From positions 558,001 to 622,000 of the forward strand of contig NZ_NIDE01000008.1 of the NCBI RefSeq assembly GCF_002197845.1: DNA of 64,000 bases. The letters run 5' to 3'. Origin of the DNA: Fimbriiglobus ruber. GTDB lineage: Bacteria; Planctomycetota; Planctomycetia; Gemmatales; Gemmataceae. This document shows, piece after piece, positions 56,418-64,000 of the stretch (position 1 is its first letter; every line of letters begins with the position of its first letter). Under the pieces are notes generated by a model, which searched no databases, was not told where the DNA came from, and saw nothing but the letters and a program-made list of their open reading frames with translations. The position numbers and the translations under genes are program-made.

Positions 56418-59325
56418 TTACTTCTTGTTGGCGGCCCCCACGTACACCCCGCCCCGGAAGCCCGGATCGAAGGCCATGAAGGCGTCGAGTTGCTGACCGG
56501 TGATCGGATCGATCGCGATGACTTCCGGACCGCCACCCGCACCCGTCGTGACGATCGCGTCGTCGTTCCCGTCGCCGTTTTCGTCGGCCGAGGCCACGTA
56601 GATGCCGCCCGTGAAATCAGCGCTGAACACGGCCTGGGACGCGAGTTGCTTGCCCGTAGTGGCACTGAAGGTGTTGACCATCGGAGCCCCGCCGGTCCCG
56701 TCGCCCGTGATGACAACGGGCTGGCCGTTGATGATCCCGCCGGTCACCGTGACACCGCCGCGGAGCGAGGAGTCGTAGGCGAAGAAACTCGACAGCGTGA
56801 CCCCGGTCATCGGGTCGATCAACTGGACGTTGGGTCCGCCGCCGTTACCCGCCCCGGCGATGACCTCGACCTTTCCGTTCACCGTCACCGTGCCGACGTT
56901 GACGCCGCCGCGGAATGACGGGTCGTAAGCGAAGAAGGAACTGACCATCGTGCCGTCGGCCTGGAACACGTCGACCCGCGGTCCGCCGCCGTTCCCGGCC
57001 CCGACGATGATCTCGTCCTTCCCGTCGCCGTTGATGTCGGCGGCGGCCACTTGAGCCCCGCCGGTGAACGTCGTTTCGAATGCGAAGAAGTTCCCGATCA
57101 TCTGCCCGGTCGCCCCGTCGAACACCCGGATGTTCGGCCCGCCGCCGGACGCCGGGGCCGTGATGATGTCCGGGACGCCGTCCCCGTTCACGTCGCCCAG
57201 GGCCACGTTGACGCCGCCGCGGAACGACGAGTCATACGCGAGGAACGAAAGCCGGAGTTGACCGGTCGCCCTGTCGAACACTTGAACCAGGGGCAGGTTG
57301 CCCGCCCCCGCCCCCACGACGATGAGGGCGTCGCTGCCGGGGACCGCGGCCGGCAAACTGGTCGGCACGATCGGCGGCAGTGTGGCGGTGTCGGGCGTCG
57401 ACGACAAGTAATCCCGCTTGGAGATCTGCGACGGGTCGATCATCGATGTCAGGACGGTCGCCGAGACGTTATTCGTGTAATCCGTCTCGGACTGGTCGGC
57501 CCCGACGATGGCCTGGCTGGTCAACGTTCCGGGCTGGTTAATCGTCCCGATCAAGCGGAGGACGGCGGTTCCGCCCGCCGGCAGCGTGCCAATACTCCAG
57601 ATTCCGGTGCCGGGGTCATACGCGCCCTGGGATGCCGATACGATCTGGGCGAGCGACACGCCGTTCGGCAGCAGGCTACTGACGATCACGTCAGTAGCGG
57701 TCCCGGGCCCGTTGTTGGTGACGACGATGGTGAACCCGTCCGTCCCGCCCACGCTGACCGACTGGCTGTCCGGCGTCAGGGTGACGGCCAAGTCGACCAC
57801 CGTCTGGACGAAACCGAAGTCCTGGGTCAAGTTGCTGTTGGCGTCCGGAGTCGAGTCCGTGATACCCGGCGTCGGGGCCTCGCCCGTCGGCTCCGCCCCC
57901 GGGGCGAGAGTGATCAGACCGCCGTAAGTGTAGATCCCGGACGTCGTCCCCTTGTCCTGGTTGTCGATGTTATTGTTCGGGGCCGGCTCGAAGGGCCCGG
58001 TCAACGTCCCGTTGCGGCCGGTACTCGACGTATACCCGGCCGGGGTGGTGACCCGGACCTGATACGTGCCCGCGTCCAGGTTCGTGAACAGGTATCCGCC
58101 CTGGGCGTTCGTCGTGGTCGTGGCAATGACGTTCCCGCTCCCGTCGAGCAGGGTTACCGTGACGCCGGCAAGGCCCGGTTCGCCCGGATCGACCACGCCG
58201 TTGTTGTTCGTGTCCTGCCACACGAAATTGCCAACCGACATCGGCTGATAGAGGCCGAAGTCTTGTTGCAGGTTGGCGCCCCCGGTGACCGAGCCGACCG
58301 TGTCCGGGTTCTGGCCGGGGAGCCCCAGAACAATGGGGTTTGTCTTGATCACCGACCCGCTGGTCGTCCCGTGGTCCGTGTTGTTCCCGGTCGTTCCCGT
58401 GGCCGGTTCGTATGGTCCGCTTGCGCTGCCATTGGTCCCGGAACTGGACGCGTACCCGGCGGGCGGCGTGATTTCCACGGTGTAAGTCCCGGGAATGAGG
58501 TCAGTGAACAGGTAATTCCCGTTGGCGTTGGTGGTAGTCGTGGCGACCGTTGCCCCGGTCGCGTCGAGCAGGGTGACGGGGATGCCCGCTAGACCGGTTT
58601 CGCCGTTGTCGAGCTTGCCGTCGTTGTTCACGTCGTCCCACACGGTGTCGCCGATGGACAGCGGTTGGTAGAGACCGAGGTCGGCGTTCGTGTTGCCCGT
58701 CCCGGGGCCGCCCGGGCCGGCGTCGGGGTTAGTGCCCGGGGTAGTCAGGGTGATCACGGTGGTGGTGACGGTCGAACCCGTCTGGGTTCCGTGGTCGGTG
58801 TTGTTGCCGGCGTCGGTGTAGTCGATCGATCCCGGCTCGAACGGCCCGGTCGGGCTGCCGTTGGTCCCGCTGCTGGAGACGAACCCGGTCGGCGGCGTGA
58901 CTTGCACCTGGTACGTACCCGGGATCAAGTCCGTGAACTGGTAGTGCCCGCCGGCGTCGGTTGTGGTCGTCGCGATCGGGGTGCCGCTGGCGTTCAAGAG
59001 GACGACAGTCACGTTCGGGATACCCGTCTCGCCGTTGTCGAGCTTGCCGTCGTTGTTCGCGTCGTTCCAGACGGTGTCGCCGATCGTCAGGGGGTCGTAG
59101 ATGCCGAAGTCGACGTTCAGGTTGGCGTTGCCGGGGCCGCTCGGGCCGGCGTCCGGGTCCGTCCCGGGGGTCGTCAGGGTGACCGGGGTGCTGGTGATGG
59201 TCGCCCCGGTGGTGGTCCCGTGGTCGGTGTTGTTGCCGGCGTCGGTGTAGTCGGTCGAGCCCGGCTCGAACGGCCCGGTGGGGCTGCCGTTGGTCCCGCT
59301 GCTGGAGACGAACCCGGCCGGGGGG
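56418..59325 (-). CDS. Giant SdrD-type surface protein, C-terminal segment
   Basis: This ~970-residue segment continues the same protein after the second frameshift. It holds the rest of the interrupted SdrD B-like repeat, three complete ones (TIGDTVWNDANNDGKLD, SIGDTVWDDVNNDGKLD, SVGNFVWQDTNNNGVVD), a DUF11 domain (DLAVTLTPDSQSVSVGG), then FG-GAP blades such as ALGDVNGDGVPDIIT and AAADINGDGKDEIIV, ending in RGGVYVGAANKK. DUF11 and FG-GAP domains are typical of adhesins. If the frameshifts are real, this part needs its own start or ribosomal frameshifting. Confidence 0.85.
59320..59325 (-). other. Frameshift site 2 in the giant gene
   Basis: A run of six G (plus strand) stands where seven are needed to keep the ThrProPro reading (ITPPAGF). 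One base is missing. Confidence 0.8.
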
Positions 59326-60182
59326 TGATCTGGACCCGGTACGTGCCCGGGGCGAGGTCGTCGAACTGGTAGTGGCCGGCGGCGTCGGTGGTGGTGGTCG
59401 CGACCGGGGCCCCGCTGGCGTCCAGGAGGACGACGGCGACGCCCGGAACCCCGGTTTCGCCGTTGTCCATCTTGCCGTCGTTGTTCGCGTCGTTGAACAC
59501 GAAGTTCCCCAGGCTCAACGGCTGATACAACCCGAGGTCCACGTTCAGATTCGCCGTCCCGGCACCGCCCGAGCCGGCGTCCGGGTTGGTGCCCGGGGCG
59601 GTCAGGGTGACCGGGGTGCTGGTGATGGTCGCCCCGGTGGTGGTCCCGTGGTCGGTGTTGTTGCCGGCGTCGGTGTCGTCGGTCGATCCGGGCTCGAACG
59701 GCCCGGTCAGGCTGCCGTTGGTCCCGCTGCTGGACACGTACCCGGCGGGTGGATCGATCTGGACCTGGTAGGTGCCGGGGATGAGGTCGGTGAACAGGTA
59801 GTGTCCGCCGGCGTCGGTGGTGGTCGTCGCGACCGGGTTGCCGCTGGCGTCGAGGAGTGTGACGACGACGCCCGGGAGGCCGGTCTCCCCGTTGTCGAGC
59901 GTGCCGTCGTTGTTGGCGTCGTCCCACACGGTGTCGCCGAGGGACAGGGGCTGGTAGATGCCGAAGTCGACGTTCAGGTTGGCGTTGCCGGCCCCGCTCG
60001 GGCCGGCGTCCGGGTTCGTCCCGGGGGTCGTCAGGGTGATCGGCTGGCTAGTAACGGTCGTCCCGGTGGTGGTCCCGTGGTCGGTGTTGTTGCCGGCGTC
60101 GGAGTAGTCGGTCGACCCGGGCTCGAACGGCCCGGTCGGGCTGCCGTTGGTCCCGCTACTGGAGACGAATCCGGCGGGGGGG
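59320..60182 (-). CDS. Giant SdrD-type surface protein, middle segment
   Basis: The middle frame lies between the two frameshift sites. It covers the end of one SdrD B-like repeat, a full repeat (SLGDTVWDDANNDGTLD) and most of another (SLGNFVFNDANNDGKMD). The reading ends out of frame at 59174 unless shifted back near 59320. It has no independent ribosome binding site that I can support. Confidence 0.7.
60176..60182 (-). other. Frameshift site 1 in the giant gene
   Basis: A run of seven G (plus strand) at the equivalent codon junction, where intact repeats read ACG CCC CCC GCC on the coding strand. One base is missing here too. Confidence 0.8.
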
Positions 60183-63100
60183 TGATCTGGACCCGGTACG
60201 TGCCCGGGGCGAGGTCGTCGAACTGGTAGTGGCCGGCGGCGTCGGTGGTGGTGGTCGCGACCGGATCCCCGGTGGCGTCCAGGAGGACGACGGGGACGCC
60301 CGGAACCCCGGCTTCGCCGTTGTCCATCTTGCCGTCGTTGTTCGCGTCGTTGAACACAAAGTTCCCGAGGCTCAACGGCTGATACAACCCAAAGTCGACG
60401 TTCAGGTTACCGTTGCCCGCATTGTCCGGATTCCCACCGGGCGGATTGAGCGTCACGGTCGGGCTGGTAACGGTCGTCCCGGTGGTGGTCCCGTGGTCGG
60501 TGTTATTGCCGGCGTCGGTGAAGTTGGTCGACCCGGGCTCGAAGGGTCCGGTCAAAGAGCCGTTCGTCCCGCTGCTGCTGATGTATCCCGCGGGCGGCGT
60601 GATCTGGACCTGATACGTTCCGGGAGCGAGGTTGTTGAACTGGTAGAACCCGTTGGCATCCGTAGTCGTGGTAATCGGATTGTGACTGCTGTCCAGGACA
60701 GGTTGCCCGTTCCCGTCGAGGAGGGTCACGGTCACGTTCGGAATGCCGGTTTCATTCCCGTCAAGTCGGCCGTCGTTATTCGTGTCGTCGAATACCAGGT
60801 TTCCGAGCGACAAAGACTGGTGGATGCCGAAATCGACGTTCAGGTTGGCGTCGCCCGTGCCACTGGGCCCGGCGTCCGGGTTGGTCCCCGCGGCCGTCAG
60901 GGTGACCGGCTGACTGATGATGGTGGCGCCATTCGCCGTCCCGTGGTCGGTGTTGTTGCCGGCGTCGGTGTAGTTCGTCGAACCGGGCTCGTACGGTCCG
61001 GTCGGCGAACCGCTAGTCCCCGTACTCGACGAGTACCCTGGCGGCGGAGTGATTTGAACCTGGTACGTTCCTGGGACGAGGTTGTTGAACTGGTAGTGCC
61101 CGCTGGCGTCCGTGGTCGTGGTGACGGGATTACCGCCGACCAGGATCGGGTGGCCCGTCCCGTCGAGGAGAGTGACCGTGATCCCGCCGATCCCGGATTC
61201 GGCCCCGTCCAAGACGCCATCGTTGTTCGTGTCCCCGAACACGAAGTTGCCGAGGCTGAGCGGTTGATAGAGTCCGAAGTCGACGTTCGTATTGGCCGTC
61301 CCCGCGCCGCCCGGGCCGGCGTCCGGGTTGCTCCCAGGCAGGCTGAGGCTGAACGCGGGGCTGGTGACCGTTGTCCCGGTGACCGTCCCGTGGTCGGTGT
61401 TATTTCCGGCGTTCGTGAAATTGGTCGATCCCGGTTCAAAGGGGCCGGACACGGAAGCGTTGGTCCCGCTACTCGACGTGTACCCGGCGGGTGGGGTGAC
61501 CCGAACCTGATAGGTGCCGGGGATGAGGTCAACGAACTGATAGTTCCCGGAGCCGTCGGTCGTGGTCGTGGCAACCGGTTGGCCGTTTGAATCGAGCAGG
61601 ACGACCGTGACGTTCGCGAGACCCAATTCACCGTTGTCCACCGTCCCGTCGTTGTTGGCGTCGTTCCACACCAGGTTGCCGACGGACAGCGGTGTGAAGA
61701 AACCGAAGTCCTGGGTTGTGTCACTGTTCGCATCGGTCGCCGGGTCGGTAATCCCGGGAGTCGAGCCTTCGCCGGTCGGGGCCGTGCCGATGCCCAGGAC
61801 AATCGGATTGCCGAGTACGACTCCGCCGGACCCGAGGGTGCCGGAGGTCGTCCCGTGGTCCTGGTTGTTCGATCCCGAGGCAAGAGAGGTCGGCTCGTAC
61901 GGCCCGGTCGGGCTACCATTCGTTCCGGTGCTGCTGATTTGACCGGCCAGTGCGCCACCGGCCGCGAAGTTCGATGCGTCGATCTGGACGTGGTACGTGC
62001 CCGGAATCAGGTCGGTGAACAGGTACGACCCCTGGCTGTTCGTGGTCGTCGAGGCGACGACCGCGTTGGACGCATTGAGGAGGCTGACGACCACGCCCGG
62101 GATGCCGGCCTCGCCGTTATCCACCATCCCGTCGTTGTTGGCGTCGTTCCACACCAGGTTGCCGATCGACAGGGGCTGGAAGAGCCCGAAATCGCCGTTC
62201 GTATTAGCCGACCCGACACCACCCGCCCCGGCGTCCGGGTTCGTCCCGGGTGTCGTTAGTGTGACTGGCTGGCTGGTCACAACGGCCCCAGTTTGGGTTC
62301 CGTGATCGGTGTTGTTCCCGGCGTCGGTGTAGTTCGTCGACCCGGGCTCGTACGGCCCAGTCGGGCTGCCGTTCGTGCCGGTGCTACTGGCGTACCCGGT
62401 CGGCGGGGTCACTTGGACCGTGTAAGTGCCAGGGATCAAGTCGGTGAACAAGTAGTGGCCGGTGCCGTCGGTGGTCGTCGTCGCGATCGGATTCCCATTT
62501 GAGAGAAGAGTGACGGTGACGTTCGGTATGCCGGCTTCCGTTCCATCGAGTGTGCCGTCGTTGTTGGCGTCATCCCACACGGTGTCGCCGAGAGACAGGG
62601 GCTGGAAGACGCCGAAGTCGACGTTCAGGTTGGCCGTGTTAGCCCCGCCGGTGCCGGGGTCCGGGTTGCCGGCGGTGCCGGAGGCGGCCAGGGTGACGAC
62701 CCCGCTGGTGATGGTGGTGGGAGTGGTCTGGGTGCCGTGGTCGGTGTTGTTGGTGGCGTCGGTGAAGGTGGCCACCCCGGGCTCGAATGGTCCGGTCGGG
62801 GAGCCATTGGTGCCGGTGCTGGAGACGTACCCGGCGGGGGGCGTGATGCGGACCTCGTAGGACCCGGGGACGAGGTCGGTGAACAGGTAGTGTCCGCTGG
62901 CGTCGGTGGTGGTGGTGAGGGGGTTGCCGGCGACCACGATGGGGTTGCCGTTGCCGTCGAGGAGCGCGACGGTGACGCCCGGGAGTCCGGCCTCACTGTT
63001 GTCGAGTAGTCCGTCGTTGTTGGCGTCGACCCACACGGTGTCGCCGAGGGACAGGGGTTGGAAGACGCCGAAGTCGACGTTCAGGTTGGCCGTGTTGGCC

Positions 63101-64000
63101 CCGCCGGCGCCGGGGTCCGGGTTGCCCGCGTTGCCGGGGGCGGCCAGGGTGACGGGTCCGCTGGCGATGGTGGCCCCGGTGGTCGTCCCGTGGTCGGTGC
63201 TGTTGGTCGGGTCGGTGAACCCGACCCCGGTGGCCGGCTCGTACGGCCCGGTCGGGCTGCCGTTCGTACCCGTGCTGGAGATGTACCCGGCGGGGGGCGT
63301 GATCTGGACGGTGTACGTGCCCGGGATGAGGTCGGTGAACAGGTAGTTGCCGTTGCCGGCGGTGGTCGTGGTGGCGACCGGGGTGGCCCCGCTGAACAGG
63401 ACGACGGTCACCCCGTTGAGGCCCGTCTCGCTGTTGTCGAGTGTGCCGTCGTTGTTGGCGTCGGCCCACACGGTGTCGCCGAGGGATAGGGGTGTGAAGA
63501 AGCCGAAATCCTGGGTGGTGTCGCTATCGGCGTCGGTGGCCGGGTTGGGGATGCCGCCCGGGGTCGGGGCCTCGCCGGTCGGCTCGGTCCCGAGCGCGAG
63601 GGTGACGACCGGTCCGGTCACCGCCCCGCCCGGCTGGGTCGTCCCGTGGTCCTGGCCGTCCGACCCGGACCCGAGCGGGCTGGGCTCGAACGGTCCGGTC
63701 GGGCTGCCGTTCGTCCCGGTGCTATTGATCTGTCCGGCGAGGGGTCCGCCGGGGGCGAAGTTGGCGGCCGGGATGGACACCTGGTACTGTCCGGGGATGA
63801 GGTCGGTGAACAAGTACCCGCCCTGGGCGTTCGTGGTGGTCGTGGCGACCGGGCTGCCGTTCGTGTCGAGGACGACGGTGACGCCGGGGATACCGGCCTC
63901 GCCGTTGTCGAGCGTGCCGTCGTTGTTGGCGTCGGCCCACACGGTGTCGCCGACGGACAGGGGCTGGAAGACGCCGAAGTCGACGTTCAGGTTGGCGTCG
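60176..64000 (-). CDS. Giant SdrD-type surface protein, N-terminal visible segment (5' end outside window)
   Basis: An open frame from the window edge to the first frameshift, with nine SdrD B-like repeats of ~120-150 residues. Each begins SLGDTVWADANNDG or a variant, continues to YLFTDLIPGTYTVQITPPAGY and ends NLNVDFGVFQP. The DxNxDG loops are calcium-type, as in staphylococcal SdrD B domains, giving a rigid rod. The protein probably projects from the cell as an adhesin or stalk. The N-terminus and any export signal lie outside the window. Without correction this frame stops at 60031. Confidence 0.85.

What the first reader, a model, noticed from the sequence alone, without database searches (positions are those of the whole stretch)
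59320..60182. Two frameshifts at the same codon junction of neighbouring SdrD repeats
The giant surface gene loses one base at 59320-59325 and again at 60176-60182. Both fall at the ThrProPro junction, inside C-runs, within two repeats that are ~93% alike by eye. Three explanations compete: a homopolymer sequencing error; decay copied by duplication; or a slippery site for phase variation or ribosomal frameshifting that controls protein length. Intact repeats elsewhere use a G-broken version of the run (ACGCCCCCC).
Basis: partly seen in the sequence, partly recalled or inferred. Interest (0 to 1): 0.65.

Follow-up and report, generated by a model that had tools for sequence, protein, structure and literature searches.

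The report
Assembly errors in a giant gene
The two "frameshifts" in this giant planctomycete surface-protein gene are most likely single bases missed by the sequencing or assembly at C-runs in near-identical repeats, because a second, overlapping contig shows three other single-base losses at the start of the same gene where its own copy reads straight through.

Summary
On the minus strand the giant SdrD_B-repeat gene changes frame twice by one missing base, at a C7 run (60182-60176) and a C6 run (59325-59320), both at the Ile-Thr-Pro junction. The two repeats are about 92% alike but not adjacent: one intact repeat lies between them. Frames stay open to the natural stop at 56418. The most likely cause is a sequencing/assembly error. 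The gene's 5' end lies at the end of contig C8, which dovetails with the start of contig C19, so the same bases were assembled twice. In about 4.1 kb of clean overlap there are no substitutions, but C8 lacks single bases at nine places. Three lie in this gene's coding sequence, at T, C and T runs, and the C19 copy reads through them as one 1280-codon frame. Frame-change calls across 1.19 Mb of the genome are 38 losses to 6 gains, and about 4.6 times denser in repeated coding DNA. The C-run motif exists nowhere else in the genome and is absent from the intact relative, and nothing unusual folds downstream of it. Real decay, phase variation or recoding at these two sites cannot be strictly excluded without reads. 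Nothing new is needed to explain the finding.

The parts
56418..64000 (-). 3' part of a giant surface-protein gene: SdrD_B repeats, then DUF11, then FG-GAP repeats; its 5' end continues past the window to about C8:627,600
   Evidence: translation in three frames, Pfam
60184..63999 (-). first frame: 1272 codons, 9 SdrD_B stretches
60176..60182 (-). first frame change, C7 run, equivalent to one missing base
59321..60175 (-). middle frame: 285 codons, 2 SdrD_B stretches
59320..59325 (-). second frame change, C6 run, equivalent to one missing base
56421..59318 (-). last frame: 966 codons, 3 SdrD_B, DUF11 (about 57794-57456), FG-GAP repeats, natural stop
60177..60264 (-). 88 bases identical to 59320-59407, ending at the C-run
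59320..59407 (-). second copy of the 88 identical bases

Best explanation
Both frame changes are sequencing/assembly errors. One C was lost from a C-run (true lengths inferred to be one longer at each site) in near-identical repeats, where correction by short or mis-placed reads works poorly. In the living cell the gene is most likely one uninterrupted frame encoding a giant SdrD_B / DUF11 / FG-GAP surface protein. Shown: one-base losses exist in this contig and in this same gene where a second contig has the base, and losses dominate frame changes across the sampled genome. Inferred: that the two sites in question are of the same kind, and that incomplete correction of long reads is the cause.
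For: (1) Contig C8's last ~6 kb dovetails with C19's first 5254 bases. C8's last 647 bases occur only there and in C19, and the C19 sequence beyond is unique, so one locus was assembled twice. In the ~4.1 kb of clean overlap there are 0 substitutions, while C8 lacks single bases (one of them a pair) at nine places. Three are in this gene's coding part (T5 to T4 at C8:625611, C4 to C3 at 627143, T3 to T2 at 627315), each breaking C8's frame, and C19 has an open frame of 1280 codons there. C19's own first ~1.1 kb is full of indels. So all five breaks of this gene in C8 are one-base losses at homopolymers, and three of the five are contradicted by the second contig. (2) A frame-change HMM over 1.19 Mb of this genome gives 38 losses to 6 gains without IS copies: 15.0 per 100 kb of repeated coding DNA against 3.3 of unique. 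Every break in the multi-kilobase repeat genes is a loss. (3) The frame stays open for 849 and 2898 nt after the shifts. (4) The closest relative with full-length similarity (62%, G088:C516) has an uninterrupted 2285-codon frame through ten such junctions. (5) Indels in homopolymers are the known residual error of nanopore assemblies and shift reading frames (PMC8011154).
Against: The two sites lie 10-11 kb from the contig end, outside the overlap, so they are not themselves contradicted by a second contig. Outside repeats the assembly reads long C/G runs well: 22 runs of seven and 3 of eight sit inside one coding frame in 748 kb. The sequencing method was not established; the genome paper could not be read. 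One control genome with 72% G+C (G087) gave as many calls per kb as this genome or more, so HMM counts include false positives. At least one call here (UreG/UreD, C8:287944) looks like a gene boundary.
Confidence: 0.87

Rival explanations
1. Genuine recent decay: the bases are missing in the cell, by replication slippage at the C-runs, perhaps copied from one repeat to the other by gene conversion. The gene is a pseudogene or makes a shortened protein.
For: 88 identical bases end at the run in both copies, as gene conversion would leave. Both copies have the same loss at the same junction.
Against: No stop has accumulated in 3.7 kb after the first shift. The copies differ with dS 0.18 and dN 0.06 in the restored frames, so selection held both frames after they diverged. 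The nearby losses in the same gene are contradicted by a second contig.
Confidence: 0.08
2. Phase variation: the C-runs change length by slipped-strand mispairing and switch the full-length protein on and off.
For: C-runs inside a surface-protein gene, with a frame change exactly there.
Against: Runs of 6-8 are short for known contingency loci (general knowledge). 25 other C/G runs of seven or eight sit in intact frames in 748 kb. Two switches in series would rarely both be on. The runs are absent from the junctions of the relative.
Confidence: 0.03
3. Programmed -1 ribosomal frameshifting (or transcriptional slippage) restores the frame at both sites.
For: The direction needed (-1) is the usual one. 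C CCC CCG at the first site is weakly slippery (sequence, general knowledge).
Against: The second site (C CCC CGG) does not allow good re-pairing of the Arg tRNA. Downstream 80 nt fold no better than shuffles (z 0.48 and 0.08) and like intact repeats. The motif occurs only at these two places in the genome and not in the relative. By contrast, the frame change of the IS630-like elements recurs at one T6A4 site in five copies.
Confidence: 0.02

Closest known systems
Residual homopolymer indels in long-read bacterial assemblies (PMC8011154; PMC12007338)
   Same: one-base losses at homopolymers that break reading frames, no substitutions; here also denser in repeats and at contig ends
   Different: read data and sequencing method of this assembly were not available, so the platform is inferred
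Giant SdrD_B / DUF11 / FG-GAP surface proteins of Gemmataceae
   Same: same domain order and repeat junctions as the gene in G088 (62% identity over 963 aa); similar repeats in most family members searched
   Different: here the frame is broken in the assembly, and the full-length relative is in one frame
IS630-like elements with two overlapping frames in the same genome
   Same: a frame change at a homopolymer
   Different: recurs at the same site in five copies, as a programmed site does; the SdrD_B site does not recur outside the two near-identical repeats

Membership tests
Sequencing/assembly homopolymer error | same bases, assembled or read independently, disagree by one base at homopolymers without substitutions | tested here: inconclusive
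   met for the 5' end of the same gene; the two sites themselves lie outside the overlap
Sequencing/assembly homopolymer error | losses dominate and concentrate in repeats | tested here: met
   38 losses to 6 gains; 15.0 versus 3.3 per 100 kb
Programmed -1 frameshift site | slippery heptamer allowing both tRNAs to re-pair | tested here: not met
   C CCC CGG at 59325-59320 fails (sequence); the other site is marginal
Programmed -1 frameshift site | stable downstream structure beyond composition | tested here: not met
   z 0.48 and 0.08
Programmed -1 frameshift site | site conserved in relatives | tested here: not met
   G088 relative uses no C-run at ten junctions and is in one frame
Phase-variable homopolymer tract | run length varies between cells or reads | not testable with these tools
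   no reads held
Pseudogene | relaxed selection and accumulated stops after the break | tested here: not met
   no stop to 56418; dN/dS about 0.3-0.4 between the copies
SdrD_B-domain surface protein | Pfam SdrD_B above curated cut-off | tested here: met
   three segments at 256, 646 and 163 bits against a cut-off of 29.7

The most novel reading that the evidence does not exclude
A real pair of C-run contingency sites in series within a giant planctomycete surface protein, which sets where the protein ends by slippage in DNA or during translation.
Probability: 0.04. Interest if true: 0.5.

Novelty: not a real feature. Interest (0 to 1): 0.07.

Why it matters
Giant repeat genes are easily judged broken, split or phase variable. 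Here the assembly itself carries a control, the same gene end assembled twice, showing that such breaks can be uncorrected one-base losses. Gene counts, pseudogene calls and claims of recoding in the repeat genes of this genome should be checked against reads first.

Tried and rejected
Looked for a depletion of long C/G runs genome-wide, which would show a platform-wide undercall: none, runs of seven and eight are about as common as in relatives, so the error is local to repeats and contig ends. Looked for downstream RNA structure and for further copies of the C-run site: nothing supports recoding. Using the HMM alone as proof was rejected, because a 72% G+C control gave many calls without strong bias (9 losses, 6 gains) and one call here looks like an ordinary gene boundary. 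The idea that C8 and C19 are two real copies was rejected: the match ends exactly at the end of C8, the sequence beyond is unique to C19, and there are no substitutions. The single genome-contig scan gave only distant relatives of the C-terminal part and no second assembly of this strain.

Full report
What is there. The minus strand from beyond the window's end down to 56418 is one giant gene with SdrD_B repeats, a DUF11 domain and FG-GAP repeats. Its frame changes twice by one missing base: at the C7 run 60182-60176 and at the C6 run 59325-59320, both in the Thr-Pro-Pro junction. Without a shift, translation ends at 60031 and at 59174. In the shifted frames the protein continues for 285 and then 966 codons to the natural stop.

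Details of the observation. The two repeats are 857 bases apart with one intact repeat between them, so they are alternate, not neighbouring. They are 91.5-91.7% identical close to the site, with an 88-base exact match that ends at the C-run. Two of the nine intact junctions listed have the ACGCCCCCC form and are read in frame. Between the copies, dS is about 0.18 and dN about 0.06 in the restored frames, so both were under selection as coding sequence after they diverged.

The internal control. The gene's start lies near the end of contig C8, which overlaps the start of contig C19 in dovetail fashion. The last 647 bases of C8 occur only there and in C19, and the next C19 bases occur once. The same locus was therefore assembled twice. 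Across about 4.1 kb of clean overlap the two versions have no substitution at all. C8 lacks single bases at nine places (one of them a pair), and three of these are inside this gene (T5 to T4, C4 to C3, T3 to T2). C8's frame is broken at each, while C19 has an open frame of 1280 codons. C19's own first 1.1 kb is in turn full of indels. One-base losses at homopolymers are thus demonstrated errors in this gene and contig.

Genome-wide view. A codon-model HMM that allows frame changes was run on 1.19 Mb of this genome. Leaving out five copies of an IS630-like element, it found 38 losses and 6 gains. The density is 15.0 per 100 kb of coding DNA that has a similar copy in the sampled sequence and 3.3 per 100 kb elsewhere. 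All breaks in the multi-kilobase repeat genes were losses. In a 940 kb sample not chosen for repeats this genome had 32 calls per 748 kb coding. Controls had 5 per 323 kb (Limnoglobus roseus, G051) and 1 per 163 kb (G010). A third control with 72% G+C had 15 per 182 kb without strong bias, probably false positives of the method. The counts are therefore supportive, not proof. Runs of seven or eight C/G inside intact frames are about as frequent here as in relatives, so the problem is local to repeats and contig ends. That is what incomplete correction of long reads with short reads would leave (inference).

Alternatives. Programmed frameshifting lacks its marks: the second site cannot re-pair well, downstream folding equals shuffles, the motif occurs only twice in the genome, and the relative in G088 has ten junctions without the run and a continuous 2285-codon frame. 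Phase variation cannot be tested without reads, and the runs are short. Decay copied by conversion is compatible with the 88-base identity but fits poorly with the absence of stops and with selection in frame.

Verdict. Observation confirmed; sequencing/assembly error at 0.87; interest low. The step that would settle it is a count of run lengths in reads anchored outside the repeats.

Noticed in passing
beyond the window end; G000:C8:622145-628296 and G000:C19:1-5254 (L077, L083): Contigs C8 and C19 overlap by several kilobases and should be joined; the start of C19 (about 1.1 kb) is very poor sequence and seems to collapse about 0.9 kb of repeats.
   Followed up: yes
G000:C1:115210, C4:620199, C8:226556, C8:303137, C19:16006: Five copies of an IS630-like element (HTH plus DDE_3) change frame at the same TTTTTTAAAAG site, consistent with programmed frameshifting in this IS family.
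   Followed up: partly
G000:C1:176399: A Ser/Thr protein kinase gene breaks frame between HVKL and DYGLV at a G-run (one base short), in non-repeated DNA; another candidate assembly error.
   Followed up: partly
G000:C8:379637, C4:626759, C4:391785, C7:372739-373854, C1:1031602: Other giant repeat genes of this genome also show one-base-loss frame changes, most with long open frames on both sides.
   Followed up: partly
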